Source: Candidatus Parvarchaeota archaeon (lineage in GTDB: Archaea; Nanobdellota; Nanobdellia; CSSed11-243R1). Taken from it: a stretch of 64,000 nt of DNA. The stretch spans positions 1 to 64,000 of the forward strand of contig WALP01000029.1 of the NCBI GenBank assembly GCA_015522785.1. Direction: 5' to 3'. Within the stretch, counting starts at the first letter, position 1; each line of letters starts with the position of its first letter. A model generated the notes under the pieces. That model was not told the origin of the DNA. It saw nothing but the letters and a program-made list of their open reading frames with translations, and made no database searches. Made by a program: the position numbers and the translations under genes. Shown here in pieces: positions 18,894-52,315 of this stretch.

Positions 18894-18930
18894 CCTTCTC
18901 TTTAGAAAAGAGAAGTTGGACCAAGAGAAA
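18894..18930 (+). repeat. Intron-like three-arm element in the mcm-glyA spacer
   Basis: The spacer contains CCTTCTCTTTAG, then AAAAGAGAAG, then TTGGACCAAGAGAAA. The first arm can pair with either of the two purine arms. The same arm order and the ACCAA junction occur in the introns of tRNA-Ile, tRNA-Glu and tRNA-Ala and in the rRNA trailers. Here it lies in the leader of glyA and ends seven bases before its start codon. Confidence 0.55.
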
Positions 18931-18936
18931 TGTGAT

Positions 18937-20250
18937 ATGATGAGTGAAAATATTCCATACGATGCAATTGAAAAAAAAGATTCTGAGATTTTCAAGTACT
19001 TAAATCTTGAAGTTGAAAGACAAAAGGAAGTTCTCAACATGATTCCTTCCGAGAATTATGTCTCAAAGGCTGTGCTTGAAGCCAGCGGAAGTATCCTAAC
19101 AAACAAATACGCTGAAGGTTATCCAGGAAAAAGATATTACCAGGGCATGTCAAATGTCGACGAGATTGAAAAGATTGCAATCGAAAGGGCGAAAAAACTT
19201 TTCGGGGCAGAGCACGCAAATGTCCAGCCATACTCTGGAAGCCCGGCGAACGCGGCAATTTATTACGCTCTTTTGAAACCCGGAGACAAGATAATGGGAA
19301 TGCGACTCGACATGGGCGGACACCTTACGCACGGGCACAACGTCAATTTCTCGGCGCGTTTTTACAAGTCAACACCTTATGTTCTCGACAAGGAAACCCA
19401 AATGCTTGATATGGACGAAATAAGAAAACTTGCAATCAGAGAAAAACCGAAATTGATAATTTCTGGTTATACAGCATATCCGCGAAAAATTCCATTCAAG
19501 GAGTTTCATGAGATAGCTGAAGAAGTCGGCGCGTATTCAATGGCGGACATTTCCCACATATCTGGATTGATTGTCGGAGGCGTTCATCCTTCACCTTTTC
19601 CATTCACGGATGTTGTCATGACAACAACACACAAGACGCTTAGAGGTCCACGCGGGGCAATTATTCTCTCAAAAAAAGAGGACAGACTCGCGAATGTTGA
19701 AGGGCTTGACGAAAAGAAGGCAAAAAGGGCAAAGAATCTCGCCTTGAAAATTGACAGGGCTGTTTTTCCCGGACTGCAGGGAGGACCACACATGAACGTA
19801 ATCGCCGCGAAGGCAGTAGCCTTTGAGGAGGCAATGACGCCGGAGTTCAAGGATTACGCGAAACAGGTTGTAACAAACGCAAAAGTGCTTGCGGAAACTC
19901 TTCTTGACAACGGCGTAAAACTTGTTACTGGCGGAACTGACAACCATTTGATTTTAATTGACTTGACACCTATTGGCGTCGGGATTGGAAAGGAAGTCGC
20001 TGTCGCCCTTGAAAACGCGGGCATAGTCGCGAACATGAACACAATTCCATACGACCCGTCAACGCCGTTCAAGCCGTCGGGATTGAGAATCGGGACTCCG
20101 CTTTTGACAACACGCGGAATGAAAGAGGAAGAAATGCAAATAATCGGCGAGTGGATTTCAAGAATAATCCTCAACAGAAAAGACGCCGCGCTCCAAAAGA
20201 AAACAAAAGAAGAAGTCAAAGCGCTCTGCGAGAAATTTCCTTTTTACTAA
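18937..20250 (+). CDS. glyA: Serine hydroxymethyltransferase
   Basis: This PLP enzyme interconverts serine and glycine while passing a one-carbon unit to a folate or tetrahydromethanopterin carrier. Clear motifs are NMIPSENYVSKAVLEA at the N-terminus, GYPGKRYYQG, the PLP-binding segment DISHISGLIVGG, and the active-site Lys in MTTTHKTLRGPRGA. FPGLQGGPHMNVIAAKAV and PSGLRIGTPLLTTRG follow. About 438 residues, close to the normal length. ATG codons at 18937 and 18940 both follow GTGAT; the first is taken. The one-carbon unit could supply the ThyX-like enzyme at 22.9-24.4 kb, which is an inference. Confidence 0.97.
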   Translation: MMSENIPYDAIEKKDSEIFKYLNLEVERQKEVLNMIPSENYVSKAVLEASGSILTNKYAEGYPGKRYYQGMSNVDEIEKIAIERAKKLFGAEHANVQPYSGSPANAAIYYALLKPGDKIMGMRLDMGGHLTHGHNVNFSARFYKSTPYVLDKETQMLDMDEIRKLAIREKPKLIISGYTAYPRKIPFKEFHEIAEEVGAYSMADISHISGLIVGGVHPSPFPFTDVVMTTTHKTLRGPRGAIILSKKEDRLANVEGLDEKKAKRAKNLALKIDRAVFPGLQGGPHMNVIAAKAVAFEEAMTPEFKDYAKQVVTNAKVLAETLLDNGVKLVTGGTDNHLILIDLTPIGVGIGKEVAVALENAGIVANMNTIPYDPSTPFKPSGLRIGTPLLTTRGMKEEEMQIIGEWISRIILNRKDAALQKKTKEEVKALCEKFPFY

Positions 20251-20267
20251 AAATAAAAAAGTTTGAA

Positions 20268-20558
20268 TTACTTTCGCAAATATTCACTCTTCTCTTTCAA
20301 AGCATTGACATATGCTCCAAGGATTTCTTTTGCACCTTCAGATAATCTATATTTGTCATTCTCTATCAAATTCTGTACATACGCTGTAACAAGTGCATAT
20401 GCACCATCTAATTTGATACCTTCAGGTGCATTATCCAACGCTACAACTGCTAATGGGAGAATCTGTAAATCTCTTGGTAGTCCTTTCTCCGAAAGAGCTT
20501 CAACATCCCTCAAAAAATCTGAAAGTTCCTCTTTATTCTTTTCAGTCATATCTATCAC
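20268..20558 (-). CDS. Small helical hypothetical protein
   Basis: The 96-residue product appears almost entirely helical and acidic (KEELSDFLRDVEALSEKG, AYALVTAYVQNLIENDKY, LSEGAKEILGAYVNALKEK). No family is recognised, although the arrangement resembles small archaeal helical proteins of the UPF0147 kind. It is transcribed divergently from the HATPase gene with a 47-base shared promoter region, and its 3' end faces glyA 17 bases away. Confidence 0.6.
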   Translation of the reverse strand: MIDMTEKNKEELSDFLRDVEALSEKGLPRDLQILPLAVVALDNAPEGIKLDGAYALVTAYVQNLIENDKYRLSEGAKEILGAYVNALKEKSEYLRK

Positions 20559-20605
20559 CCTATGCTCACTAAAAAGTAGTAATATTTAAATATTTCGATA
20601 GTTAA

Positions 20606-21223
20606 ATGACAAGTATGGTATTCACAGAAAAATCATTAGAGGAATGTCTTGAAGAAATTGGATTTGATAAAGATAATTTAGTTAAGCGAAGATTATCAGA
20701 TCGTGAAAGAGAGCTATGGAAAATTTCAACAGGAGAATATCCTGGAGAATATAGACTACCTCATTTAATAGACGTTACTTCTCCGCCAATCCGTGGGGAT
20801 ATACACAAACAAATATTAGATGGTGGAAGTTTAGAAATAAACTATTCAGTAAATGTAACATTAGATAGCTATATAAGCGAGCTGAAAGACGTTGACAAGA
20901 TAGCTTTTATCTTTCTAAAAAAGCTACCAAAAAGACCGGACATCTTTTTCTTTTCCGAAGTTTTTACCAACTGCATAGAATGGGGAAATGACAACGAGGG
21001 AAAGCTAGACATCCACATATGGGCCACCAACAAAGGAAGTCTAACTGCGATCACTCAAAAGAACGAATGGGACTATAAGAAGTATATCAGCGATTTCAAA
21101 AATGAAATAGCAAAACCGAAAGGTGGAGGAGCGGGAATGTGGGTAATTGACAAAAGTCCCTATGAAGTTGGATATACAAACAACGGCCGAACCACATACA
21201 TTTTAATAACAAAAAAATGGTAA
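20606..21223 (+). CDS. RsbW-like histidine-kinase-type ATPase domain protein
   Basis: The 205-residue protein has a C-terminal HATPase domain of the anti-sigma-factor/serine-kinase type. The N-box appears as FFFSEVFTNCIEWGNDNEG, the G1/G2 region as PKGGGAGMWVIDKSPYEV, and the final strand as TNNGRTTYILITKKW. A histidine phosphoacceptor domain is absent, so it is not a classical sensor kinase. The first 90 residues are not recognised. It is a single-gene unit with a TATA-like ATATTTAAATATTT upstream. Its client in an organism without sigma factors is unknown. Confidence 0.75.
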   Translation: MTSMVFTEKSLEECLEEIGFDKDNLVKRRLSDRERELWKISTGEYPGEYRLPHLIDVTSPPIRGDIHKQILDGGSLEINYSVNVTLDSYISELKDVDKIAFIFLKKLPKRPDIFFFSEVFTNCIEWGNDNEGKLDIHIWATNKGSLTAITQKNEWDYKKYISDFKNEIAKPKGGGAGMWVIDKSPYEVGYTNNGRTTYILITKKW

Positions 21224-21320
21224 AATGAAATACAGACTCATCGAAAAATCAATATAATAATATTTTAGTTAGAAAAAACCTATTTATTCAACAATCACAT
21301 CAAACTTCTACTTCATCTAT

Positions 21321-22781
21321 TTACATATTAAATCCCTTATATGCATTAACTTTCCAAATGGATTTATACTCTCCATCATTGACTTCTTCGGGAAGCATAT
21401 CTGCGATTGCAAAAATCGGCTTCTTTTCCCCAACAATATAGTTTATGTCCTCAATCTCTTCCGGCGACATAATAACATCAACCATAACAGTTCCATCCTT
21501 AGGTAAGTTAGAGGATGTCTTTCTTGGATTGTAAAGATGGATGTCTTTGCCAAGATTCTTTGAGATGGTATATCCAAGTGGAATTATGTTATTAGTTGCT
21601 CCTACTTTTTCCATTAAAATTGGTGTTGCACCTATATCTTTTAATCCATTTTCAAGATTTTTCAAAAATAATTTATTCTGTGGATTGGATGTAACTGAAT
21701 GTGGAATGTCTATCGAGATTGGAGAATTTCCATAAGGAGTCACAAATAAACCTCTAAAATCACTTAGCCCCATAAACAAACCATTAACTGTTGATGAATT
21801 AAAATAGTTGAGGACAAAGCTTTCTCTTAATGTTTCGACAAACTGTCTTAGTTTGTTTGACATCTCCTCTGGAATTTGTTCTTCATCTTTATTATAAACT
21901 ATATCTTTTTTTTCTTCAACAAGCTCATTTAATTTTTTGTATTCATTTTCAGGAATATTCTGATACAAAAAGTCGTAATGCAAGTAGTAAAACAATGCAG
22001 TACCAAAAGATTCAACCCCACGGGATCTTGCTTTCTGTAGATTGTAAATATTTTTTGTAAGCTGATATCTCTCACTCTGAGCATATTCAATTTCAACTTT
22101 TCTCATATCTTTTTCAAAATTCTCTTGCAATGAATTGTTCTTCCAATCAACAAACACAGCATCTACATTATTAGGATGAATTTCTTGGTATATTAATTCG
22201 CTAAAAGCGTATTCTGGACCCGATTCAAAATTGTCAACCACAAATAATGTTTTTTTAGAGTGGCCCATTTTACCATTTTTAGAGTATCTATATAATAAAT
22301 GCCTTGGACTGCGAATCACAAAATTTTTTGACTCGCTTTGATTGACAAGCTCGGATAAAAACACAAGAGAACTAAGTCCTTCTTTACGCGGCTCCAAGAG
22401 AACGACTTGCTCAAATTTGTTTTCATTTATGTAATCCAACAATTCAGAAAATATTTTGTCCATGTTTTCTTTTTTCCCAATTTCCTGCGATGGAACAAAA
22501 CTAAAAGAATTGTATTCATCTACCAACTCATCTATAAATTTGCCATCAAATGGCGGCATGAGGAGATAGTCTTTAACGCCTTTAACTAACCTACTCATCT
22601 TCTCTTTATTCATATAACCTCCCGTAGAATTATACAACAGATATTCCAAAATTAACCCGTCAAAAAGATAATTAATATCTTTTGAATTTAAATTTTCATT
22701 ATTCATGGATTCTAAGAAATCTTTTTTAATCGTTGAAATCGCTTTAACAGCCCCATCTAGATTATTATCAGACAATTTCAT
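21321..22781 (-). CDS. Unknown 486-residue protein, possibly with PRTase-like segments
   Basis: The N-terminal 110 residues are helical and acidic. Two later segments look like remote phosphoribosyltransferase folds: FEQVVLLEPRKEGLSSLVFL then KKTLFVVDNFESGPEYAFSEL, and ATPILMEKVGATNNIIPLGY then DGTVMVDVIMSPEEIEDINY. In both, a hydrophobic strand is followed by an acidic turn in the position of the PRPP loop. This resemblance is weak and no catalytic residues can be proven. The gene stands alone, about 100 bases from its convergent neighbour, and is relatively AT-rich. Confidence 0.5.
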   Translation of the reverse strand: MKLSDNNLDGAVKAISTIKKDFLESMNNENLNSKDINYLFDGLILEYLLYNSTGGYMNKEKMSRLVKGVKDYLLMPPFDGKFIDELVDEYNSFSFVPSQEIGKKENMDKIFSELLDYINENKFEQVVLLEPRKEGLSSLVFLSELVNQSESKNFVIRSPRHLLYRYSKNGKMGHSKKTLFVVDNFESGPEYAFSELIYQEIHPNNVDAVFVDWKNNSLQENFEKDMRKVEIEYAQSERYQLTKNIYNLQKARSRGVESFGTALFYYLHYDFLYQNIPENEYKKLNELVEEKKDIVYNKDEEQIPEEMSNKLRQFVETLRESFVLNYFNSSTVNGLFMGLSDFRGLFVTPYGNSPISIDIPHSVTSNPQNKLFLKNLENGLKDIGATPILMEKVGATNNIIPLGYTISKNLGKDIHLYNPRKTSSNLPKDGTVMVDVIMSPEEIEDINYIVGEKKPIFAIADMLPEEVNDGEYKSIWKVNAYKGFNM

Positions 22782-22852
22782 TATACCACCTCACAAGTTA
22801 AACTACACAATCTAATAAAAACTTTTTGTAATTCAAGAGTGTAAAAAATAGT

Positions 22853-24415
22853 TTAAATCAACCCCTTCTTGATTTTTTCCTCGAGGCGCAATTCCGCTTT
22901 TAGTCTGCCGAGCTCGTCGTCGCTCATGTTGCAAACCATGTATTTAGTCAAAAGCGGAAACTTTTCTTTCATTATTATGTACATCTGCCGCACTATGTTC
23001 CTGTATGACTCATGCGCCTGCGGCGTCGTCCTTATCTTGACCAAATGGTACATCTCTCTCAAGTTTGCAGTCATCAAGTATCTTTTCTTAAACGCCAGCG
23101 GAACAATATACTGTGCTTCGTAAGGATACTTTTCGTAAATTTTTCTGAAAAGCTTGTCCGCCTTCTGCATTATCTTGTCAAACTCTTCCTTAAATCCGGC
23201 TTCAACTATGTCTTTTGGAATCGAATATCCGTTAAAAGTTGTAGTCATCTGCGGCGTCTGAGTGCAGATTCTGTGTCTCTGCAAGTCCCTGAACGCGCCA
23301 TAATCCATTAAGATATCCCAAGTGAAATAAACATGCTCAAGCTCGCGCATGGGCCAGTCGTGCGGACCCATCTTTTCCAAATAGCTATCAAATACTTTTT
23401 CTTTCTCTTTTTTTGGCATCTCTTTAACTTTATTTAAAACTTTTTCCATTGGCGCGTTTGAATACTTGTAAATAATCGCTGCAACAACTAAATCGTCAAT
23501 GTCTTCCGAATGAGAAATCAAATTGACGGGTGTGCCACTCTCTTTTTCAAAATTATATTCTTTGACAAGCTCGCGCATATTGCTGTTGGTTTCAGATAGG
23601 TAATCATCTCTGTCGGCGTACTTCAAAAGGGATGGCAAAACCTTTTTTCCTTCCTCTCTAAGCATCTTTCCAATAACCTGCATCTTGTTTATCGGATGCG
23701 AAAGCAACTTCTTTATGCCGTGGGCGAGTTCCCTAGCGTTGACTGTCCACCCCAAGCTCGTCATTGTCGCGGCAGGCAGGACATATCTAACAGCGTCAAA
23801 CCTTCTGGCGGCGCACGCGCGCTCCCACGCTTTCTCTAATTGTCCCTCAGCAAGAGGCGCCGTCTTCTTCACATATTCCAAGACTGGCTCCTGGAGCTTT
23901 TCATAAAAGTCAAACAGCTCGTTAATCATATTCTCGACTTCCTCGCCGAACTCAGAATTTTTTAATTTTTCATCTATATAAAAAGAGTTCCTGTTGAAGT
24001 GAACATATCTTGTTGACTTTTCTATGAAGGATGAAAGGCGGTTGTCCTCAATTACCTTTGTCGCTAAAATACTTACTCCCTCCAGCCCTATTCCGACGAC
24101 TGCGCCTTCCGCGACTGAGGCGTGCCCATATCCGAGAACCCACTTGTCCATGAATTTAATTGCCTTGTTTATGGCATTGTCAATTCTTATCTGTGATTCT
24201 TTGTTCTTAAGGACTTCGACAAGCTGATTGAAATTTTCCTCATCCTGTTTCAAAAGTTCCAAAAAGTTCTGCCTTAATCCTTTTTTGGAACGGGAATACA
24301 TTGCCTGCATCAAAGCCCAAACTTCCGGGTGCATATTTTTCACAAAGAAGACGGGTTTGTCAAGATTTGTGAAGAAATGATTCAAAACAATTTTTTCGTC
24401 ATCAGTATAATCCAA
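22853..24415 (-). CDS. ThyX-like protein with two tandem halves (FAD-dependent thymidylate synthase family)
   Basis: The product of about 520 residues is twice the length of a normal ThyX subunit. The first half has GYGHASVAEGAVVGIGLEG and the ThyX-type signature DNRLSSFIEKSTRYVHF. The second half repeats the pattern with DYGAFRDLQRHRICTQTPQ and LKxREMYHLVKIRT-like NLREMYHLVKIRTTPQAH. Canonical ThyX motifs (RHRxxSxxxxSxRY) are split between the halves. Related long forms exist in other archaea. TTG at 24415 is chosen because GGGGTGGT precedes it; GTG 24424 or ATG 24445 are alternatives. The promoter overlaps that of the divergent membrane protein. Confidence 0.8.
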   Translation of the reverse strand: MDYTDDEKIVLNHFFTNLDKPVFFVKNMHPEVWALMQAMYSRSKKGLRQNFLELLKQDEENFNQLVEVLKNKESQIRIDNAINKAIKFMDKWVLGYGHASVAEGAVVGIGLEGVSILATKVIEDNRLSSFIEKSTRYVHFNRNSFYIDEKLKNSEFGEEVENMINELFDFYEKLQEPVLEYVKKTAPLAEGQLEKAWERACAARRFDAVRYVLPAATMTSLGWTVNARELAHGIKKLLSHPINKMQVIGKMLREEGKKVLPSLLKYADRDDYLSETNSNMRELVKEYNFEKESGTPVNLISHSEDIDDLVVAAIIYKYSNAPMEKVLNKVKEMPKKEKEKVFDSYLEKMGPHDWPMRELEHVYFTWDILMDYGAFRDLQRHRICTQTPQMTTTFNGYSIPKDIVEAGFKEEFDKIMQKADKLFRKIYEKYPYEAQYIVPLAFKKRYLMTANLREMYHLVKIRTTPQAHESYRNIVRQMYIIMKEKFPLLTKYMVCNMSDDELGRLKAELRLEEKIKKGLI

Positions 24416-24460
24416 AATTACCACCCCAAAACTTAAAACATGCAACTTAAATAAAAAGTT

Positions 24461-25003
24461 ATGGGTGACGACTGGTTCGAAAAACTTTCAAAAGAATTTA
24501 ATCCGAAGCACCTTGTTGTAATCCCATTAGTCACAATTCCCACATTAATGTTCACAAAAACGATGATAATCCTACTCCTTTTCACAGCCACATTCGCGGC
24601 AAGTTACTTCGGAAGGAAAACAAAACTTAAAAAATTTGGATTGGAATTGGCGACGTTTACCACAATCATAACAGGGATGACATTCGGGGTAATTCCCGGA
24701 TTGCTTGCTGGTGTTTTAACAATCTTGTTCCACGACTTGATTACAGGCAGGATAAACTTGTACCTGGCTGTCGTTGTGCCGACGTTCGGCGTAATCGGAG
24801 CGGTCGCGGGGATGTACCCACATGCGAATATTTTCGTTTTGGGAGTCGGGTTGACAATATTTTCCCATCTAATATTCATTATTTTCCAAACTCTACTTTA
24901 CAGGTTTCCCGCAAGATACCTGCCGTACTTTGCGCTAAATGTTGTCTTCAACGCGCTCTTGTTTTACAACATAGCACCGACAGTTCTAAAGTTAATAACT
25001 TAA
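24461..25003 (+). CDS. Multi-helix membrane protein
   Basis: The 180-residue protein has five or six hydrophobic segments, including HLVVIPLVTIPTLMF, TMIILLLFTATFAASYF, the Gly-rich TTIITGMTFGVIPGLLAGVL, LYLAVVVPTFGVIGAVAGM, and FVLGVGLTIFSHLIFIIF. The Gly/Pro-rich third helix and an Asp at HDLITGRI are reminiscent of small transporter-like or ECF S-component-like proteins, but no family is claimed. The ATG lies only 46 bases from the divergent ThyX start, so the two promoters overlap. Confidence 0.65.
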   Translation: MGDDWFEKLSKEFNPKHLVVIPLVTIPTLMFTKTMIILLLFTATFAASYFGRKTKLKKFGLELATFTTIITGMTFGVIPGLLAGVLTILFHDLITGRINLYLAVVVPTFGVIGAVAGMYPHANIFVLGVGLTIFSHLIFIIFQTLLYRFPARYLPYFALNVVFNALLFYNIAPTVLKLIT

Positions 25004-25044
25004 TGGTAGTAAATTTTATAAACAATTAATTGGTTGTGTTCAAC

Positions 25045-26073
25045 ATGGATATATATGACTCATTTATAACATATCTACTTAATAACCGCGATGGGGATCA
25101 TGTGATTTTAGAACGCATTGCAGATGATGTACTTCTGAAAATGCACGACGATGTACTCACGGATAATTCATGTGAAATGTATGTCGATGACATCCTGTCA
25201 AGTGGTTTTAGAGAAAGTGAGTTGCCAAAGATAACTAAAGCAATATCCTATCTCGTCAAAGATAAAGAACTCCGAGATGCAATTCTTGATTATGTTGTAG
25301 AAGGAGAATATGATGAATACGACTCCTTTGTGGAATATATCCAAAACTTACACAAAATTGTTTCCAACAAAGAGGATATTCCGAATACATTCAGCATCGC
25401 GAAAGACATAGATGAATTTGTTGATAGCGAAGAATTCAAGGAGCTTGAGAAATTAATAGATGATGTGCACTCAAAAGCGAGTATTGAAATTTCTTATCTC
25501 ATCTATAACGACAGTCAAACAGATAACTGTATCAATATAGAGTTAGGATTGGATAGAAAAAGAGTTTATTCAACAGAAAGTACAATGTACAAAACAACAG
25601 ACGGCGACGAGTTAGGGGAGTTTCAATTAGAACTTAGTTATATAGATGATAAAGTGAGATCCAGGATTAAATCATATGATGGGGGATATATCTCTGTTAC
25701 TATCTCTTTCAACGAAGGTGAAAAGGAGTCCACTGTGTCTGTTGAAAGTTACGCTCCAAGATTATTTAGAAAAGGGTTTGTGAAAAAAGGTGAAACACAA
25801 TTCAAAACGGACGGAGCGGAGGAATTAGTTAAAATTCTAAAAAAACGCCATGTCAAGGAATATATAAAATATTGTTCTGACCCATCTACTTGGTCTCCAA
25901 GCATAGCAGAACCTAATGACATTTCAGATTATATTACTGATTTGAGATATCTTGCGGCAATAGCTGAGATAATAGACGAGCACAAAGATGAAAATGGCAA
26001 AGTCAAATTTCCAGAAGACTACGAGAAAGTCAAAGACAAACTCATACAAGCAGGATGGCCAATTCAGCAATAA
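25045..26073 (+). CDS. Acidic hypothetical protein
   Basis: The ATG at 25045 is preferred because a TATA-like AAATTTTATAAAC lies about 25 bases upstream; the longer frame would begin with TTG. The 342-residue product is rich in Asp and Glu, with no signal peptide, membrane helix or recognised motif. The N-terminal 150 residues look helical, and residues 160-250 look like a beta-rich domain (IEISYLIYNDSQTDNCINIE, VSVESYAPRLF). It is monocistronic; RPA-like gene transcription restarts from its own TATA box after it. Confidence 0.6.
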   Translation: MDIYDSFITYLLNNRDGDHVILERIADDVLLKMHDDVLTDNSCEMYVDDILSSGFRESELPKITKAISYLVKDKELRDAILDYVVEGEYDEYDSFVEYIQNLHKIVSNKEDIPNTFSIAKDIDEFVDSEEFKELEKLIDDVHSKASIEISYLIYNDSQTDNCINIELGLDRKRVYSTESTMYKTTDGDELGEFQLELSYIDDKVRSRIKSYDGGYISVTISFNEGEKESTVSVESYAPRLFRKGFVKKGETQFKTDGAEELVKILKKRHVKEYIKYCSDPSTWSPSIAEPNDISDYITDLRYLAAIAEIIDEHKDENGKVKFPEDYEKVKDKLIQAGWPIQQ

Positions 26074-26103
26074 TTTTATAATGCTACTTTTATTTGATTT
26101 TTC

Positions 26104-26802: not shown

Positions 26803-26807
26803 TAATC

Positions 26808-28702: not shown

Positions 28703-28733
28703 TTTTATAAAACAATCTTCTATGGTTATTATT

Positions 28734-29039: not shown

Positions 29040-29049
29040 GGGTGATAAA

Positions 29050-29595: not shown

Positions 29596-29596
29596 A

Positions 29597-30475: not shown

Positions 30476-30594
30476 TAATCTTTTGACACATAATACTATC
30501 ACTTAATATTTCTATAACAAATAGTATAATTAAAATGTTTATAATGATAATTTATGACATAACCTTTTTATATTCATAACTTATTCTCATTTTA

Positions 30595-38578: not shown

Positions 38579-38579
38579 A

Positions 38580-38628: not shown

Positions 38629-38681
38629 ACAAGCACCCTTCTTAAAAAGAAGCGTGCACGGAAGAAGTGGTGTTTGGGTGA
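38629..38681 (+). other. Intron in the D loop of tRNA-Ile
   Basis: This 53-base insertion begins ACAAGCACCC and ends GGTGTTTGGGTGA. AAGCACC can pair with GGTGTTT. It shares AAGCACCCTT and GCGTGCACGGAA with the T-loop intron of tRNA-Ala. Exact boundaries can shift by one base because of flanking A residues. Confidence 0.8.
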
Positions 38682-38708: not shown

Positions 38709-38751
38709 CACCTTTCTTTGGAAAAGTTGTACCAAAGAAAAGTGAAAGAGA
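38709..38751 (+). other. Intron next to the anticodon of tRNA-Ile
   Basis: The 43-base insertion follows the complete anticodon loop, at the usual archaeal 37/38-type position. It contains CCTTTCTTTGG, GAAAAG and ACCAAAGAAAAG, the three-arm design seen in other introns here. Confidence 0.85.
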
Positions 38752-40083: not shown

Positions 40084-40133
40084 AGACCTTTTCTTTTGGA
40101 AAGAAAAGTTCTACCAAAAGAAAACTCGGACAT
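40084..40133 (+). other. Intron in the D loop of tRNA-Glu
   Basis: The 50-base insertion reads AGACCTTTTCTTTTGG, AAAGAAAAG, then TTCTACCAAAAGAAAACT. The first arm can pair with either later purine arm. It is the clearest copy of the shared element. Confidence 0.85.
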
Positions 40134-40159
40134 TCCGGTCAAGGATGTCGGCCTTTCGA

Positions 40160-40207
40160 ACGACCTTTCTTTGAAAGAAAGCTCGACCAAAGAAGGGCGT
40201 ATAGAAA
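40160..40207 (+). other. Intron next to the anticodon of tRNA-Glu
   Basis: The 48-base insertion reads ACGACCTTTCTTTG, AAAGAAAG, CTCGACCAAAGAAGGG and ends GTATAGAAA. It has the same arm order as the D-loop intron of this tRNA. Confidence 0.85.
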
Positions 40208-40426: not shown

Positions 40427-40445
40427 TGAAGATATTTCTTTAATT

Positions 40446-40467: not shown

Positions 40468-40526
40468 ATTTCAAAACTTTTAAAAATACCCCTAAAATTA
40501 GTTAGTCTTATGCGGGGGTACCCAAG

Positions 40527-40563
40527 AAACCTTCCACTCTTTTAGAGGAGAAGGGATGGGAAT
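40527..40563 (+). other. Intron in the D loop of tRNA-Leu
   Basis: A 37-base insertion between CCCAAG and CTGGTCC: AACCTTCCACTCTTTTAG, AGGAGAAGGGATGGGAAT. It is the shortest of the set, and its arms are the least regular. Confidence 0.75.
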
Positions 40564-40588
40564 CTGGTCCAAGGGGCAGGACTTAAGA

Positions 40589-40630
40589 AGCCCTTTTCGC
40601 GAAAAGCGCTTGCGGAAAAGGCTTTTGATA
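40589..40630 (+). other. Intron next to the anticodon of tRNA-Leu
   Basis: A 42-base insertion: AGCCCTTTTCGC, GAAAAGCGCTT, GCGGAAAAGGCTTTTGATA. CCTTTTCGC can pair with GCGGAAAAGG or with the nearer GAAAAG. It resembles the intron in the 16S gene, which also has a CTTTTC/GCGGAAAAG-type pattern. Confidence 0.8.
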
Positions 40631-40660
40631 TCCTGTGACTTAGTGTCCGCGAGGGTTCAA

Positions 40661-40725
40661 AAGCACTTTCTCTCTTTGAAAAGAGAGAACCTGCGCTAAG
40701 AGAGAAACTTAGCGAGTGTTTGAAA
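40661..40725 (+). other. Intron in the T loop of tRNA-Leu
   Basis: A 65-base insertion in the T loop (TTCAA before, GT after). It starts AAGCAC and ends GTGTTTGAAA, which can pair with each other. The T-loop intron of tRNA-Ala has the same ends. Confidence 0.8.
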
Positions 40726-40760
40726 GTCCCTTCCCCCGCATTTCATAATCTGGTGAACAC

Positions 40761-41762: not shown

Positions 41763-43312
<1,550 letters not shown>

Positions 43313-43349
43313 TATTATAAAGGTGGATGCAAGAAAACAATTCCTTGCA

Positions 43350-43380
43350 TTGCGCAATCTACCACTAGTTGTTGCCTTCC
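43350..43380 (+). other. 3' strand of the 16S processing stem
   Basis: TTGCGCAATCT, CACT and TTGTTGCCTTCC complement the leader strand at 41720-41750. The intervening trailer starts right after the anti-Shine-Dalgarno tail. Confidence 0.7.
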
Positions 43381-43386
43381 TACAAA

Positions 43387-43419
43387 CCTTCTTTAAAAAA
43401 GAAGCTTTACCAAAAGAAA
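43387..43419 (+). repeat. Intron-like element in the 16S trailer, copy A
   Basis: CCTTCTTT, AAAAAAGAAG and CTTTACCAAAAGAAA repeat the arm order and ACC junction of the tRNA introns. It lies outside the processing stem. Confidence 0.55.
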
Positions 43420-43450
43420 TTTCTTTAGAGAAATACTTTCTTTGATGCAA

Positions 43451-43488
43451 CTTTCTTAGAAAGGTGCTAAGAAGCTTTACCAAGAAAT
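43451..43488 (+). repeat. Intron-like element in the 16S trailer, copy B
   Basis: CTTTCTTAG, AAAGGTGCTAAGAAG and CTTTACCAAGAAA. The string AAGAAGCTTTACC occurs in almost the same form in copy A, so the two are related. Confidence 0.5.
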
Positions 43489-43554
43489 TCTAATACTTTT
43501 CATAGAAAAAAGTGATTAAATAAAATTTAAAAACTAGCGGGAGCTTTCTTGATT

Positions 43555-44079: not shown

Positions 44080-44080
44080 T

Positions 44081-44695: not shown

Positions 44696-44755
44696 ATCTA
44701 CTTGATGTAAAGTAAATTTAAAAAGTTTATATTTACTAAAATTATTGATGAAAAC

Positions 44756-45154
44756 ATGAAAATCAAACTTACCTGTGCAACAGACGACAAAATAAATTTT
44801 ACAAAAGAACATTTCGGAGAAGCAAAAGTTTACTTAATATATGAATTAAACTTAGAAAATAAAGAGCTAACTTTTCTCGAAGAAAGGAAAAATACCTCCT
44901 CTAAAGAAGAGGTACATGGCGACCCTAAGAAAGCAAAAGAAATTTCAAGACTACTAAATGATGTTCAGATTTTGGTTGCATTTGCTATGGGTCCAAATAT
45001 TGTGAGAATGAGAAAGAAATTTGTGCCAGTCATTTCAAGAAAAATAAACATAAAAAATGCTCTTGAGCTATTAAAATCTAAAACGGATGAACTAAAAGGA
45101 GAAGTCGAAAAACCAATAGGTGAAGATAAAGAAATAATTTTTCTAAAGGAATAA
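44756..45154 (+). CDS. NifX/NifB-type dinitrogenase cofactor domain protein
   Basis: The 132-residue product has the fold of the iron-molybdenum-cofactor-binding family (MKIKLTCATDDKINFTKEHFGEAK, KAKEISRLLNDVQILVAFAMGPNIV). In most archaea these proteins occur without nitrogenase and have unknown roles, perhaps in metal or cofactor handling. No nif genes are seen here. It ends just before the tRNA-Ala promoter. Confidence 0.8.
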   Translation: MKIKLTCATDDKINFTKEHFGEAKVYLIYELNLENKELTFLEERKNTSSKEEVHGDPKKAKEISRLLNDVQILVAFAMGPNIVRMRKKFVPVISRKINIKNALELLKSKTDELKGEVEKPIGEDKEIIFLKE

Positions 45155-45238
45155 TAAACTCGCTAGTTTTATAAATACTAAATTTAGTCTTAAAGATTGT
45201 GGGCCGGTGGCGCAATTGGTGGCGCGCCCGCCTTGCAC

Positions 45239-45298
45239 AAGCCTTTCTTTCAAAAAGAAAGCCTTGAGGAAAAGAAACTCGAGGGGGGCTTCAAGTGC
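45239..45298 (+). other. Intron next to the anticodon of tRNA-Ala
   Basis: The 60-base insertion contains CCTTTCTTTCA, AAAAGAAAG and GAGGAAAAGAAACTC, then AGGGGGGCTTCAAGTGC. It follows the same three-arm plan. Confidence 0.8.
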
Positions 45299-45318
45299 GC
45301 GGGAGGTTGGGGGTTCAA

Positions 45319-45380
45319 AAGCACCCTTTTCTTAAAAGAAAAGCGTGCACGGAAAAGAACTTTTTCGTGGGTGTTTGAAA
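45319..45380 (+). other. Intron in the T loop of tRNA-Ala
   Basis: The 62-base insertion starts AAGCACCCTTTTC and ends GGGTGTTTGAAA. It shares its core GCGTGCACGGAA with the D-loop intron of tRNA-Ile and its ends with the T-loop intron of tRNA-Leu. Confidence 0.85.
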
Positions 45381-45430
45381 GTCCCTCCCGGTCCATACTT
45401 TTTATAAAGAATAAATTCTTTGTAATTTCT

Positions 45431-46114
45431 ATGAATAAATTAGTCTTATTTGATATTGATAATACACTAATTAAAAGTTCAAAGGTTAAAGATAGCATCG
45501 CATTTCCTGAGGCATTCAAAAAAGTTTATGGTGTTGAAGCAAGCATTAATGACATAAATGCTCATGGAATGACAGATCAACAAATCATCATTGAATTAAT
45601 GAAATTAAAAGGTATAGATGAACATAAGATATTGTCAAAGTTAAAGGATTGTATGCAAACAATGATTGATTCCTTTAATAGGGTTTCTGATCAAGATGAA
45701 GTTGTCTTATTGGATGGTGTTAAAGAACTTTTGAGTGAACTTGAATCTAAAGGTTTCATAATAGGACTAGTAACTGGGAACCTTGAACCTATTGCTAGGG
45801 GAAAACTAAAAAAAGCAGGCATAAATCATTATTTCAAAGTTGGTGGGTTTGGTAATGAGGATATTAACAGAGTTAATTTAGTTAAATTAGCAATAAAGAA
45901 AAGTGAGGAAAGGTTTGGGTTCAAATTTAATAAAAATGTATTTCTTTTTGGGGATACACCACAAGATGTAAAATCTGGAAAGGCAGCAGGAGCAACTGCA
46001 ATTGGAGTTACAACAGGTATTTACTCTAAAGAGCAGTTAAAAGAAGCTGGTGCTGACTATATCTTTGAAAATTTAGAAGATACCAACAAAATTTTAGATA
46101 TTTTAATCCACTGA
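45431..46114 (+). CDS. HAD-superfamily phosphatase (phosphoglycolate phosphatase-like)
   Basis: The 227-residue product starts MNKLVLFDIDNTLIKSS, the catalytic Asp motif of the HAD family (DIDNT). Motif II is GLVTGNLEPIARGKL, and motif IV is FLFGDTPQDVKSGKAAG. The helical cap follows motif I. Substrates of this group are small phosphate esters. The start at 45431 follows tRNA-Ala; an upstream extension across the tRNA is an artefact. Confidence 0.92.
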   Translation: MNKLVLFDIDNTLIKSSKVKDSIAFPEAFKKVYGVEASINDINAHGMTDQQIIIELMKLKGIDEHKILSKLKDCMQTMIDSFNRVSDQDEVVLLDGVKELLSELESKGFIIGLVTGNLEPIARGKLKKAGINHYFKVGGFGNEDINRVNLVKLAIKKSEERFGFKFNKNVFLFGDTPQDVKSGKAAGATAIGVTTGIYSKEQLKEAGADYIFENLEDTNKILDILIH

Positions 46115-46205
46115 AAATGCCAGTTTGGACTCCCAGTTCACTTTTTATGAAAATGTTTTTTAAACAATTGAAACATATTTAAATTTAAAGTATAATCTTA
46201 TTTAT

Positions 46206-46682
46206 ATGATTATAAAAAATAAAAATAAGTTAAAAGAGATTATTGATGCTACAAAGGCTTCTGGAAAGTCAGTTTTAATAAAAAAAGGGGTTTTTGATAT
46301 AATCCACCCCGGACACATCTTTTTATTAAAAATGTTAAAACAGTATGCTGATATTGTAATAATATTAATCCAATCAGATAGCTTTACGCATAAGAAAAAA
46401 GGAGGGTGTAGACCAATAAATAACCAATACCACAGAATGAAAGTTATGGATGGAATAAAAGGAGTAGACTACGTCTTTCCGGATAAATCTAACTCCAGAA
46501 GAGAGTATATCGCTCTCTTGAATTTTCTTAAACCAACAGTTGTCGCTATAACTTCTACTAATACTAAAAAAACAAAAGCATATACAAATCCCCATTGGGA
46601 ATTAAAAGAATTTCCAGATAAGAAAAAGCCGGGGTTTTCGACAACAGAAATCATTAATAAAATATTAAAAAAATGTTCTTGA
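46206..46682 (+). CDS. Nucleotidyltransferase of the cytidylyltransferase (HIGH) family
   Basis: The 158-residue protein begins with KSVLIKKGVFDIIHPGHIFL, the GxFDxxHxGH motif that binds nucleotide. SRREYIALLNFLKP and TEIINKILKK are also typical. The closest architecture is the nucleotidyltransferase half of HldE or the CTP:glycerol-phosphate class, but the acceptor is unknown. TATA-like ATTTAAATTTAAAG lies upstream. It lies in the stable RNA region. Confidence 0.85.
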   Translation: MIIKNKNKLKEIIDATKASGKSVLIKKGVFDIIHPGHIFLLKMLKQYADIVIILIQSDSFTHKKKGGCRPINNQYHRMKVMDGIKGVDYVFPDKSNSRREYIALLNFLKPTVVAITSTNTKKTKAYTNPHWELKEFPDKKKPGFSTTEIINKILKKCS

Positions 46683-46872
46683 ATTATTTAATTCATTAAC
46701 TATTGCTCGGCAATTACCATAAGTGTGTTATCTTCCTTAATGAAAATTAATTTCGAAGAAGTATAAGAATATCCAAACATAAATTAGCGTAACATACTTT
46801 GTATCAAGACAATTTATAGTTAATTGAAAATACGATGTTCGTAAGAGAAGATGATCATCATAGAAGATTATT

Positions 46873-47820
46873 CTAAAAAGAAAATGCTGGTGCACCGCCA
46901 GGACCTGCCTCAAATCGTCTGTAATACTCATTTCCAAAATTATCATAACACTTAAAAGCCCCAAGCATCTCACATGAGTCATTCACTAGTATATAACTAA
47001 CATTCTCTCCAAAAGAAAGGTTAGTTAAAGTAAAATTACTCCACGCATACTCAACATGCTCCGCCATGTAAATCATATGACACCTCAAATACAAACTACT
47101 TATATCTCTCTTTGCCACAAGCTTAATGAATACATTACCATCTTTGCACCCGCCACCAGTTATACCAACATAACCTTTTGGCTCTAAGTTGTTAACAGTA
47201 TAGTTTATTCTACTTAATTTTAACAATGTAACAGTTTTATTAGAAATGTGATCAAAAAATGTGTACCTAGTCAAAACACCATTTGATAAACTTCTACATA
47301 TCTCTTGCGGGGTCGCATTGAAATCTTTCATAAAATTATATATGTAATCAGTCATAAAATGCCTCTCTGTTGGGTCTGTATTTCTAAAACAAATACTCAG
47401 TTGCCCAGCGATAATATGGAATCCGCTAAATCGTAAGGATCGTTCATCTATGTGTGGATGTAATATTAAAAATGGTGACTTATCCCACCCCAATGATGCA
47501 TTCCCCTTTACCCAATAATTGCTTAAAATCTCCAACTTGGAACGATTAAATTTTTCAGGACAACTATAGATGTAACACCCAAACCAATAGTACTTCGACA
47601 AATTACCTAATCTTGAATACCCTACGCCATATCCATAATGATCATGAAAGTCAACATATAATATCGCTCGAGGAGTTATGTACTCAACATTTATCTCATT
47701 GATATTTTTCTCCTTCCGTTCTAAATACAAATAAATTTCAGGAGAGAAAATACTTAACATAAATATAAAAGATAAGGATAATAAAACCAAAACAATCGCA
47801 GTAACAATCCATTTATTCAT
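46873..47820 (-). CDS. Exported, Cys-containing hypothetical protein
   Basis: The ATG at 47820 is preferred (MNKWIVTAIVLVLLSLSFIF). The 315-residue product has one N-terminal membrane helix and an extracellular part rich in aromatic residues and several Cys that could form disulfides (GCYIYSCPEKF, SICFRN, EICRSL, GGGCKDG, RCHMIYM, DSCEMLGAFKC). N-x-S/T sequons are frequent. No family is recognised. It is AT-rich and sits alone between the HIGH nucleotidyltransferase and the 23S gene. Confidence 0.6.
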   Translation of the reverse strand: MNKWIVTAIVLVLLSLSFIFMLSIFSPEIYLYLERKEKNINEINVEYITPRAILYVDFHDHYGYGVGYSRLGNLSKYYWFGCYIYSCPEKFNRSKLEILSNYWVKGNASLGWDKSPFLILHPHIDERSLRFSGFHIIAGQLSICFRNTDPTERHFMTDYIYNFMKDFNATPQEICRSLSNGVLTRYTFFDHISNKTVTLLKLSRINYTVNNLEPKGYVGITGGGCKDGNVFIKLVAKRDISSLYLRCHMIYMAEHVEYAWSNFTLTNLSFGENVSYILVNDSCEMLGAFKCYDNFGNEYYRRFEAGPGGAPAFSF

Positions 47821-47874
47821 ATGAAAATAAAGTTTTCTCAAGATAATAAATATTTCTCAATCAAATATCGTAAC

Positions 47875-47885
47875 ATTTATAAATG
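47875..47885 (+). promoter_or_regulatory. TATA-like box of the 23S transcript
   Basis: ATTTATAAATG lies about 190 bases before the 23S gene and about 25 bases before a purine-rich start region. The leader then contains the 5' strand of the processing stem. Confidence 0.5.
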
Positions 47886-48051
47886 CGGAAATTTCTCATT
47901 AACAAGTTAGGTTGATGATATATGATAAGCCAATAGTGCCTTTGAGCACCAAAATTGTGATTCAACCTATTTTCTTCGTGTGCTTCCAGAGTCAAATGCA
48001 CTTGGAAGTAAAGGCATCCACTTGTGCCATGTATCATGGTCAATGATGTCG

Positions 48052-48066
48052 TGCATAGGGAAACAC
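48052..48066 (+). other. 5' strand of the 23S processing stem
   Basis: TGCATAGGGAAACAC is the perfect complement of GTGTTTCCCTATGCA at 51056-51070, on the other side of the 23S gene. The stem marks the pre-23S excision site. Confidence 0.75.
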
Positions 48067-48071
48067 CAGAA

Positions 48072-51052
48072 TAATAGGCAACTACGCTGTTAGGTGGATG
48101 GCTCGGCTCGGATGCTGATGAAGGGCGCGGCAAGCTGTGATAAGCCACGGGTAGCCGCACGCAGGCTAAGATCCGTGGATCCCCGAATGAGACTTCTCGG
48201 CACGCAGTGATGTGTGTCACTTGCTTTGCAAGGAGTAACCCCGCGAATTGAAACATCTTAGTAGCGGGAGGAAAAGAAATCAATCGAGATGCTGTGAGTA
48301 ATGGCGAACGAAAGCGGCATAGGGCAAACTGAATCGCGCGCCGCAAGGCGTGTGAGATGTGGTGTTTGGAGCTGCATATGCCACTCTTGAGGTTAAGCTG
48401 AAGTTCTTTGGAAAAAGACACCATAGAGGGTGATAGTCCTGTAAGCATAAGCCAAGAGGGTGGTGCAGTTTCCAGAGTACATGGGGTTGAAATTCCTCGT
48501 GGAAAATGGGAGGCAGTAACTTCCAACCCTAAATACTCTCCGAGACCGATAGCGAATTAATACCGTGAGGGAATGCTGAAAAGTATCCAGAAGTGGAGGT
48601 GCAAAGAACCTGAAACCTAACAGTTACAGTGTGTTGCGGCTCAAAAGGCTAGTTCTTGAGTGAAGCTGTCGCGAGGCAGTTGTAGCGAAGGAGTTAGTTC
48701 CAGGGTTGCAACGTGTGTTTCGGATAATGTGGCAGGGAGTTTGTCTCAGTGGCAAGGGTAACTTCAGATAGGAAGGTACCCAAAGCGAAAGCAACAAGCG
48801 CGCAGCTTGCGAGGCGCGACGTATGAAAGTGCGTGGAGTCACTGGGACCAGACCCGAAGCCGCACGATCTATGCCTGGCTAGGATGAAATGGGGATTAAT
48901 TTTCCCATGGAGGTCCGTAGGGGTGCTGCCTTTCAAAGCGCTCCCATGAGCTGGGTATAGGGGTAAAAGGCCAATCATGTGCGGCGATAGCTGGTTCCTC
49001 CTGAAATGAGCCTAAGCTCAGCCTTGTCCGAGCTTGCTGGAGGGGTAGAGCACTGATTGCGTACGCAGGGATCGAAAGGTTTCGGTGCGCTGTCAAACTC
49101 CGAATCCTTCAGTAGTGTAGACGACAAGAGTCGGGGCATCGGGGTAAGCTCGGTGTCCAAAAGTGGAACAACGCAGACTGGAGTTAAGGTCCTTAAATGC
49201 TGACTGAGTGAATTGAACTTTGTCACCAGCCATAAACAGCCGGGAGGTAGGCTTAGAAGCAGCCATCCTTCAAAAAGTGTGTAACAACTTACCGGTCAAG
49301 GCTGTTGGCGGGGAAAATGGACGGGTCTAAGTCAGCTACCGATACTCCAGACCACATCTCTATGAGGTGTGTGTGGTAAGGAGGCGTGTCGCGTGGGCAG
49401 AAGTTAGTTCGTAAGGACTGATGGACCATGCGATATTGAAGATCCTGCCGGTAGTAGTAGCCTAGAAGGGTGAGAATCCCTTCCGCCTTATGAGCCAGGG
49501 TTCCTCGGCAATGCATCGTCAGCCGAGGGTCAGTCGGTCCTAACCCACTTGGTAATTCCTCAGTGGGGAAAGGGAAGCAGGTTAACATTCCTGCACCACT
49601 TGGATACGATCGGCAACGAAAGCCTGCTCAATGACGCTTCTGGATAGGTGGAGTAGCACCGTCGTGCTATCTAACAGAGATAAATCCGGGAAGTTCCGTA
49701 ATGGAGAGATCCGGATTAAATCTGGAACGGCTGGCATCTGTCAGTTCCATCGACTCCCGGAGCCCGTGAAAAGTTGAGCAGGAAGGATTCCAAGCGGCCG
49801 TACCGAGAACCGGGACAGGTGTCTCAGGCTTAGAAGGCTAAGGCGTGTAGGACTAAGTTAGTTAAGGGAAGTCGGCAAATTAGCCCCGTAACTTCGGGAG
49901 ATGGGGTACCTGCGACAGTGTTTCCTTGAGAAGTGTTGTTGCAGGTCGCAGTGACAAGGGAAACTGGACTGTTTAACAAAAACATAGCTGGTTGCTAATC
50001 GGAAACGACTTGTACAACCGGCGACGCCTGCCCAGTGCCGGTATCTGAAACCCCTTTTCAAGGGGGCCAAGGACCGGTAAACGGCGGAGGTAACTGTGAC
50101 CTTCTTAAGCAAGCGCAATGCCTTGCCATTTAAATGATGGCTTTGCGAACGGCGTAACTAGGTTTCCGCTGTCCCTAACTAACATCCTATGAATACACTA
50201 TTCTGGTGCAAAGGCCAGAGACTTCCATTGGGACGAAAAGACCCCAGGAGCTTTACTACAGCCTGCATTTGTGTTTCAGGTTTTGGTGTATAGCGTAGGC
50301 AGGAGAGGTTTGATAATGTCGACGCTAGTTGGCATCTACTCGCCAATGTAACACTGCCCACCTGAATCTGAAACACTCACCTCAAGATGAACTTGAGGAA
50401 CATGTGTTGGTGGGTAGTTTGGCTGGGGTGGCACGCCCGCGATAAAGGATCACGGGCGCCCAAAGGTCAGCTCATCCGGGTCAGAAATCCGGAGTAGAGC
50501 GTAAGGGCAAAAGCTGGCATGACTGCTTTCCTCAGATCACGGAAAGCAGGGACGAAAGTCGGGCCTAGCGAACCACAGAGCCTTTTTATTGAGGGCCTGT
50601 GATGACAGAAAAGCTACCCTGGGGGTAATAGAGTTGTCGCGGACGAGAGCTCATATCGACTCCGCGGCTTGCTACGTCGTCGTCGGCTCCCCCCATCCTG
50701 GCTGTGCAGCAGCAGCCAAGGGTACGGGTGTTCACCGGTTAAAGGGGGTCGTGAGCTGGGTTCAGTACGCTGCGAGGCAGTACGGTTTTTATCTAGTGGA
50801 AGTGTCGGGAGACTGAGTGGAGGGTCCCTTTAGTACGAGAGGAACGAGGGATCGGTGCCTCTAGTTAACCGGTTGTCCGACAGGGCAAACGCCGGGTAGC
50901 CACGCGCTAGCGGATAAACGCTGAAAGCATCTAAGCGTGAAGCCGCTCGCAAAAAGAGTCTCTCATGGTGCTGGGGAAGAAGACCCCGTTGATAGAGCCG
51001 AGATGTAATTTCGTAAGAAGCAGTCTACGGCTACTAATCGCACCACGCTTAT
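48072..51052 (+). rRNA. rrl: 23S ribosomal RNA
   Basis: The 5' part has GGTGGATGGCTCGGCTCGGATGC-type archaeal sequence (at 48092 onward), and later landmarks include GGCGATAGCTGG, GACGAAAAGACCCC, GGTAATAG...AGAGCTCATATCGAC and AGTACGAGAGGAACGAG. No intron was seen. The peptidyl transferase region deviates: 50621-50633 reads GGGGGTAATAGAG and 50671-50689 reads GCTACGTCGTCGTCGGCTC. By hand alignment 2452 is U, 2503 U and 2504 C, with 2455-2496 and 2456-2495 changed together. Ends are approximate. There is no linked 5S. Confidence 0.96.
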
Positions 51053-51055
51053 TGT

Positions 51056-51070
51056 GTGTTTCCCTATGCA
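51056..51070 (+). other. 3' strand of the 23S processing stem
   Basis: GTGTTTCCCTATGCA pairs perfectly with 48052-48066. Confidence 0.75.
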
Positions 51071-51097
51071 TGGCACTTGATATCTTTTCATTTGCCG

Positions 51098-51134
51098 CCT
51101 TCTTTAGAAAAGAAGGTAGGTTGCCAAGAAAGAG
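51098..51134 (+). repeat. Intron-like element in the 23S trailer
   Basis: CCTTCTTTAG, AAAAGAAGG, TAGGTTG and CCAAGAAAGAGA repeat the three-arm order of the tRNA introns. It lies outside the processing stem, in the transcribed trailer. Confidence 0.5.
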
Positions 51135-51223
51135 AAAAAGTTTCTAGATGGATTTGAGTTTAGCGTAAGCTTTAGTAAAGTTTATAAATAATTACTACTT
51201 TATAATAGTAACAGGTGAGGTAA

Positions 51224-51592
51224 ATGAAAGGGTATTTACACATAAATCCAAAAATAATGCTAAAAAAACTAGACGAATATGTATCCAATGAGGAATATGA
51301 TAAATACGAAAGGGTATTAGGTGTGCTCTCACAGTACCTTGCGCAAGGATTTGAAAAAGCAAACAACAAATATGAATTCCACGAAACTCTTATGGAAAGT
51401 ATAAATCCCAAAGACCCATTAAAATCTATTCATAAACTTCTTTATTTTATGGAAAGGTATAAGATATATTATACTTTTTTCCAAGATGTGGATTCAACTT
51501 TAAGGGATAAAGATATAGAAAATTTAGAAAATCTTCTTAACGGAGGATTGGAGATTGAATTGAATGAAAACACATTAAAAAAAGAAATGTGA
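51224..51592 (+). CDS. Hypothetical protein
   Basis: The 122-residue product is helical and charged, with YISNPKIM-like start MKGYLHINPKIMLKKLDEYV, then YFMERYKIYYTFFQDVDS. No motif is recognised. GGTGAGG precedes the ATG and TTTATAAATAATT lies about 40 bases upstream. The next gene starts seven bases after its stop, so the two form an operon between 23S and RNase P RNA. Confidence 0.55.
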   Translation: MKGYLHINPKIMLKKLDEYVSNEEYDKYERVLGVLSQYLAQGFEKANNKYEFHETLMESINPKDPLKSIHKLLYFMERYKIYYTFFQDVDSTLRDKDIENLENLLNGGLEIELNENTLKKEM

Positions 51593-51599
51593 TTCAAAA

Positions 51600-52031
51600 A
51601 TGGCAGACTGGAACAGAATAAAAACAAACACCAAGTTAATAGAAATTTACTCAAGAAATGTGGATAATCCATTTGATTTGTTTAATCTATTAAAAAAAGT
51701 TGAATTCGCAAAATTGGGTTGGGAAGGTGCAGGCAAGGTATTTAAAGAGAACCCCATTATTGAGGCAGAACAAAATTATACTTCCAACTGCGCAAAAAAT
51801 CTCGAAGAGGAATTTCTGTTCTCTATGGATATGTGGATATACTCAATTATAGATGAAGACAAAGAAAGCATAAACAGAAAAATTGCCGACGCCGTAACCA
51901 AAAACAAAAATTGTGGATTCAGTTTGATTTACACATTGGCTGACTATAAAGAACTGCTCCCTGTAATGTGGGAAACTTACAAGTTTTTGCTAAATGAAAA
52001 AAATATGAACCCAAAGGATGAAGTGTATTAG
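51600..52031 (+). CDS. Hypothetical protein
   Basis: The 143-residue acidic protein contains three Cys (SNCAKNL, NKNCGFS) but no zinc-finger pattern. MADWNRIKTNTKLIEIYSRN starts the sequence. Predicted helices cover most of it. It is co-transcribed with the preceding unknown gene and ends about 80 bases before the RNase P RNA promoter. Confidence 0.55.
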   Translation: MADWNRIKTNTKLIEIYSRNVDNPFDLFNLLKKVEFAKLGWEGAGKVFKENPIIEAEQNYTSNCAKNLEEEFLFSMDMWIYSIIDEDKESINRKIADAVTKNKNCGFSLIYTLADYKELLPVMWETYKFLLNEKNMNPKDEVY

Positions 52032-52112
52032 TTATTATGGAACGATTTATTCGGAACAGAAACAACTGTGAGAAACAACTTGTATGACTCAGAAATCGCG
52101 TATGCGTAAGTG

Positions 52113-52120
52113 TTATAAAA
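52113..52120 (+). promoter_or_regulatory. TATA-like box of RNase P RNA
   Basis: TTATAAAA lies about 25 bases before the 5' end of the RNA at 52141. Confidence 0.5.
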
Positions 52121-52165
52121 GAAAAATACACAATCAAAATGTGGGTGGGATAGGCAACTGCCGCC

Positions 52166-52207
52166 GTCTTTCTTTTGGTCCAGCTTTTCTTTCCAAAAGA
52201 AAAGATG
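52166..52207 (+). other. Intron-like insertion in the P3 region of RNase P RNA
   Basis: TCTTTCTTTTGG, then CTTTTCTTT, then CCAAAAGAAAAGA. The parts are those of the tRNA intron element. It could also be an enlarged P3 hairpin that stays in the RNA. Confidence 0.5.
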
Positions 52208-52223
52208 GTGAGGAAGCTCGTCC

Positions 52224-52315
52224 ACCAAAGCCTTTCTTACCAAGACATAGCGACTTCGTCGCTTGTGCCGAGACGAAGTCTCGTCAAAGCCTTGGGAAAG
52301 AAGGTTGAAAAGTTG
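52224..52315 (+). other. About 90-base insertion between CR-I and P8 of RNase P RNA
   Basis: Between CR-I and the P8/P9 hairpins (GGCGGAGTAATCCGTCC and CCGCAGAAATGCGGG) lie about 90 bases where other RNase P RNAs have about 15. The insert carries two hairpins (GCGACTTCGTCGC and GAGACGAAGTCTC) and is framed by CCTTTCTTACCAAG and CTTGGGAAAGAAGG. Confidence 0.55.

What the first reader, a model, noticed from the sequence alone, without database searches (positions are those of the whole stretch)
18894..52315. One three-arm RNA element recurs in tRNA introns, rRNA trailers, RNase P RNA and an mRNA leader
The pattern is: pyrimidine arm CC-TTTCTTT(T), complementary purine arm AAAGAAAG, short linker, then a second purine arm with (A)CC-AAAGAAA. 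The first arm can pair with either later arm, so the RNA may switch between two folds. Copies: mcm-glyA spacer 18894-18930, tRNA introns 38709-38751, 40084-40133, 40160-40207, 45239-45298, 16S trailer 43387-43419 and 43451-43488, 23S trailer 51098-51134, and RNase P inserts near 52166-52207. Its presence outside structural RNA exons suggests a mobile or regulatory RNA family, not just introns.
Basis: partly seen in the sequence, partly recalled or inferred. Interest (0 to 1): 0.85.

Follow-up and report, generated by a model that had tools for sequence, protein, structure and literature searches.

The report
Archaeal three-strand repeat, intergenic and in introns
The window carries a dozen copies of a small repeat (about 35-45 bases), found in widely separated archaea, whose three arms follow the letter code of a triple helix; in this tiny archaeon it has also settled inside the spliced-out introns of tRNA and rRNA genes.

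Summary
The copies are real but misread in part. The third arm is not a rival Watson-Crick partner of the first. It is the mirror image of the second (CTTTTTCTT..AAGAAAAAG..ACC-AAAAAGAA), the code of an antiparallel purine-motif (R.R-Y) triple helix. In the whole 578-kb genome, asymmetric arms gave 22 mirror-only and 0 direct-only third arms. All copies share a 3-bp base helix (covarying: 112/120 against a shuffle maximum of 46), a conserved pyrimidine-pyrimidine mismatch and a 3-nt linker. A detector found 64 in the genome and 0 in the reversed genome. Relatives carry up to 49; ANME-1, Methanosarcinales, Bathyarchaeia and several DPANN phyla also carry it, about 60 per ANME-1-type genome. Copies lie in tRNA and rRNA introns, rRNA trailers, directly after stop codons and between genes; the RNase P copy is antisense. 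ANME-1-type copies show no strand bias and often form inverted pairs. Closest known: E. coli BoxC/PIT/TM-ECO intrastrand-triplex repeats and GC-rich triplex repeats of Methanomicrobiaceae. Best reading: an AT-rich, archaea-wide, DNA-level dispersed repeat of that kind, which entered EndA-spliced introns in this lineage. Triplex folding and mobility are inferred; a two-fold switch is only weakly supported.

The parts
18891..18930 (+). class I copy in the mcm-glyA spacer: base helix 18891-18893/18917-18919, hairpin 18895-18915, ACC 18920-18922, mirror arm AAGAGAAA 18923-18930
   Evidence: starts 1 nt after the mcm stop codon
38629..38681 (+). tRNA-Ile(GAT) D-loop intron with a class II copy (38634-38667)
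   Evidence: spliced product called tRNA-Ile(gat) by ARAGORN
38709..38751 (+). tRNA-Ile anticodon intron with a degenerate class I copy (R arm shortened)
40084..40133 (+). tRNA-Glu(TTC) D-loop intron with a class I copy (40084-40124)
40160..40207 (+). tRNA-Glu anticodon intron with a class I copy (40161-40195)
   Evidence: sequence; class III consensus
43384..43419 (+). class I copy in the 16S rRNA trailer (third arm an imperfect mirror)
43436..43467 (-). class I copy on the opposite strand in the 16S trailer, facing the previous copy
   Evidence: C28 43463 -
45238..45292 (+). tRNA-Ala(TGC) anticodon intron with a class II-like copy (45239-45274)
45320..45381 (+). tRNA-Ala T-loop intron with a class II copy (45322-45352)
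51095..51132 (+). degenerate copy in the 23S rRNA trailer (hairpin plus mirror arm AAGAAA; no Y.Y mismatch)
   Evidence: fold; not found by the strict detector
52167..52208 (-). class I copy inside the RNase P RNA gene, antisense to it
   Evidence: G001 carries an antisense copy at the same place (L100 ~999)

Best explanation
This is a dispersed short repeat of Archaea, built as Y arm - loop - R arm - mirror R arm on one strand. It follows the letter code of a class II purine-motif (R.R-Y) intrastrand triple helix, standing on a conserved 3-bp base helix with a pyrimidine mismatch and a 3-nt linker (ACC, GCU or ACG-like). Shown: the anatomy, its covariation, its copy number and its spread. Inferred: that a single DNA strand (lagging strand or transcription bubble) folds into the triplex; that copies spread as DNA by an unknown machinery; and that in this Nanoarchaeia lineage copies settled inside bulge-helix-bulge introns, rRNA spacers and 3' gene ends, where splicing or position makes them harmless. 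In introns the exon-flanking sequences form the splice site and the element is probably a passenger.
For: Mirror rule: nT in arm 1 equals nA in arm 3 in 81 of 89 copies; mirror identity 97% against 65% for a direct copy; permutation 0.978 against mean 0.766, max 0.807. Unselected whole-genome scan: asymmetric arms 22 mirror-only, 0 direct-only. Base helix: 112/120 against shuffle max 46, ten or more different pairs; without requiring it, N1 138/145, N2 137/145. Orthologous 3' UTR copies in G000 and G001 changed AC/GT to AA/TT. 64 copies against 0 in the reversed genome. Copies per genome with a core pattern: 18 in G000, 49 in G001, 26 in G002, reversed-pattern control about 0. Archaea-wide. 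No orientation bias in archaea-wide loci: ++37, --25, +-30, -+20 against background 97/64/58/58. Class III faces class I in 36 of 47 cases. A G001 16S intron absent from G000 shows the 3-4-3 bulge-helix-bulge. Precedents: PMC4666352, PMC8044849.
Against: No structure was measured. Copies in tRNA genes are sense (T-arm test 60 sense, 0 antisense, 1 both, 145 undecided) and many mRNA copies in this genus start directly after a stop codon in sense, which suggests a role in RNA; PMC4666352 states that purine-motif triplexes cannot form in RNA. No transposase was linked: no Y1 transposase in G000-G005. Wobble counts do not say which strand folds (15 G.T against 9 A.C).
Confidence: 0.55

Rival explanations
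1. An RNA element: the third arm lies along the hairpin groove in RNA (minor-groove A-strand or an RNA purine triplex) and acts at RNA 3' ends and in introns, for example against exonucleases or as a processing signal.
For: Sense orientation in tRNA genes; copies start within a few nt of stop codons in sense with covarying base helices; the element after the same gene is kept in G000 and G001 although the downstream gene differs.
Against: No orientation bias in other archaea; antisense in RNase P of two species and antisense to tRNAs in G006; purine-motif triplexes reported not to form in RNA (PMC4666352).
Confidence: 0.2
2. A non-autonomous mobile element whose hairpins are transposase recognition ends (REP- or MITE-like; class I and inverted class III as the two ends).
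For: Inverted class I/class III pairs in 36 of 47 cases; gain and loss at orthologous sites; tRNA-end duplications around copies in G006.
Against: No Y1 transposase in the six genomes of the window's family, though these are 69-91% complete; a fixed-sequence binding site does not explain strict arm-to-arm mirror covariation; no longer I...III unit with a gene between was seen in the loci held.
Confidence: 0.15
3. A two-state RNA switch controlling EndA splicing.
For: In intron copies the 5' NACC can pair with a 3' GGUN, excluding the base helix (38/70 against 3/29).
Against: The third arm is a mirror, not a competing complement; non-intron copies keep the same core without the outer helix.
Confidence: 0.08

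Closest known systems
E. coli BoxC / PIT element / TM-ECO (class II intrastrand triplex motif; PMC4666352)
   Same: Y - loop - R - short linker - R order on one strand, many intergenic copies, inverted pairs, no link to gene orientation
   Different: TM-ECO is GC-rich and its published arms do not separate mirror from direct copy; no base helix with Y.Y mismatch is described; not in tRNA or rRNA introns; reported from proteobacteria
Repetitive G-rich/C-rich triplex-forming repeats of Methanomicrobiaceae (PMC8044849)
   Same: archaeal, intergenic, dispersed, predicted antiparallel R.R-Y triplex, no strand bias
   Different: R-R-Y order (third strand 5'), GC-rich, G-quadruplex potential, limited to one family
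Archaeal bulge-helix-bulge tRNA/rRNA introns, including introns at non-canonical positions (PMC4090602, abstract seen only)
   Same: the copies in tRNA and 16S genes sit in such introns
   Different: the core also occurs outside introns and keeps its own covariation
REP/BIME elements and their RAYT transposases
   Same: short palindromic dispersed repeats near gene ends, often in inverted pairs
   Different: third mirror arm; no RAYT-type gene found in these genomes

Membership tests
Class II intrastrand triplex motifs (PIT/TM-ECO) | Y arm, complementary R arm, then R arm with A over A-T and G over G-C in antiparallel order | tested here: met
Class II intrastrand triplex motifs (PIT/TM-ECO) | forms a triplex in single-stranded DNA | not testable with these tools
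   needs CD, NMR or footprinting
TM-ECO itself | pattern CCCTCNCCC N3-6 GGGNGAGGG N3 GGGNGAGGG | tested here: not met
   arms here are T/A-rich with single C/G; linker 7-8 nt including the base helix
BHB (EndA) introns | two 3-nt bulges separated by a 4-bp helix at the exon-intron borders | tested here: met
   read by eye for the G001 16S copy (sequence, against G000 16S); tRNA copies tested only by exon joining
BHB (EndA) introns | every copy lies in an intron | tested here: not met
   3' UTR, trailer and intergenic copies
REP/RAYT | Y1 transposase gene in the genome | tested here: not met
   none in G000-G005; genomes incomplete
Rfam families | match above gathering score | tested here: not met
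   only 16S and 23S rRNA in the window

The most novel reading that the evidence does not exclude
An archaea-wide element keeps a three-strand purine-motif code by compensatory change and works as RNA in introns and at 3' ends, so a natural R.R-Y triple helix would exist in RNA against the current rule.
Probability: 0.12. Interest if true: 0.9.

Novelty: new variant of a known kind. Interest (0 to 1): 0.66.

Why it matters
Intrastrand triplex repeats were known mainly from GC-rich bacterial and methanogen repeats. In TM-ECO the published arms do not separate a mirror from a direct copy. Here many diverged copies change arm 1, arm 2 and arm 3 together in mirror register, which is natural three-way covariation for a triple-helix code. 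It also gives one recognisable element shared by distant archaea and by tRNA introns, so the origin of some multi-intron archaeal tRNA genes becomes testable.

Tried and rejected
Watson-Crick switch between arm 1 and the two purine arms: rejected by asymmetric arms. 3' UTR terminator or stability element as the general explanation: the after-stop placement is tight in the window's genus but orientation is near background in other archaea. tRNA-minihelix mimic (ACCA after the helix): considered, but it does not explain the mirror arm and classes II/III lack ACC. Wobble test for the folding strand: 15 against 9, inconclusive. Y1 transposase: absent. Text search for core sequences: no archaeal paper in the 20 listed of 85 hits. 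Alignment A1 was made from copies chosen for their base helix, so it is not used as evidence of pairing.

Full report
Setting. The window is contig C28 of a 578-kb, 69% complete archaeal draft genome. I fetched essentially the whole genome (578,637 of 578,669 bases) and many loci of relatives.

The element. Each class I copy reads 5'-N1 N2 A Y - [C T..] loop [..A G] - Y U N2' N1' - ACC - purine arm. Three features hold. First, N1N2 pairs with N2'N1' in 112 of 120 distinct copies, using at least ten base combinations; shuffling partners gives a mean of 30 and a maximum of 46. Selecting copies only by the R arm and its mirror, without asking for the base helix, gives 138/145 and 137/145. Second, between base helix and hairpin there is nearly always a pyrimidine-pyrimidine mismatch (C.C 112, T.C 16, C.T 8, T.T 1 of 145). 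Third, the last arm is the mirror of the R arm in fixed register: T3C gives ACC-A3G, T4C gives ACC-A4G, T5C gives ACC-A5G, TTCTC gives AAGAG. In 73 asymmetric arms mirror identity is 97% against 65% for a direct copy. A scan of the whole genome that asked only for base helix, mismatch and hairpin found 22 asymmetric arms with a mirror-only third arm and none with a direct-only one; the archaea-wide counts in that call are biased because those loci were fetched with a mirror pattern. The mirror rule is the pairing code of an antiparallel purine-motif triplex (A.A-T, G.G-C). Class II (GAAAG after an ACG-like linker) and class III (CCTGUGCU linker) obey it too.

Chance. The core regex occurs 24 times against 0-3 in order-2 Markov sequence. 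The strict detector finds 64 copies, 0 in the reversed genome and 7 when a purine-purine mismatch is asked for.

Where copies lie. Joining exons in the window gives ARAGORN calls of tRNA-Ile(GAT), Glu(TTC), Ala(TGC) and Leu(TAA), which is why no tRNA was found unspliced. G001 has a copy inside 16S rRNA where G000 has none; by eye its borders fit a 3-4-3 bulge-helix-bulge (TACCG TGA CACC ... GGTG CGGT AAA). In the window's genus and other relatives many copies begin -3 to +2 nt from the end of a stop codon, in sense. One such site, after a 500-aa protein that is 80% identical between G000 and G001, keeps the element in both, with a compensated base-helix change and a different downstream gene. 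Other orthologous sites lack it, so copies are gained or lost. The RNase P copy is antisense in both G000 and G001. In tRNA-linked copies a T-arm test gave 60 sense and 0 antisense, with most undecided.

Spread. A core pattern finds 49 copies in G001, 26 in G002 and up to 18 in scattered genera of the class, with the reversed pattern near zero. The three bacterial hits have poor hairpins at the matched site. Two ANME-1 genomes hold 65 and 67 copies by a shorter pattern. In these archaea the element is mostly intergenic, its strand is close to background, and class III faces an inverted class I within 150 bp in 36 of 47 cases.

What it most likely is. The nearest published things are class II intrastrand triplex motifs such as BoxC/PIT/TM-ECO (PMC4666352) and GC-rich R-R-Y triplex repeats of Methanomicrobiaceae (PMC8044849). 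I take the archaeal element as an AT-rich, dispersed, DNA-level repeat of that kind. Entry into introns, rRNA spacers and 3' ends is then explained by tolerance. The sense bias in tRNA genes and the tight placement after stops are not well explained by this and keep an RNA role open.

Limits. No structure, expression or transposition was measured. Gene calls for orientation were simple longest-ORF calls. Sorting copies into intron and non-intron types was done by hand.

Noticed in passing
G006 loci L137-L140: Copies lie antisense in the 3' flank of tRNA genes and are flanked by a second copy of the tRNA 3' end; in L137 a 60-bp unit is in tandem.
   Followed up: partly
L100 2795-2865 and L121 1041-1112 (23S rRNA genes of G001 and G002): 23S introns hold two elements facing each other on opposite strands, making a three-hairpin palindrome; G000 lacks this intron.
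   Followed up: partly
L093 2442 (G001) and window 18923-18940: The mirror purine arm runs into the ribosome-binding region of the next gene (an RpoN-like frame in G001, glyA in the window).
   Followed up: no
window 40513-40740: tRNA-Leu(TAA) appears to be split by three introns.
   Followed up: partly
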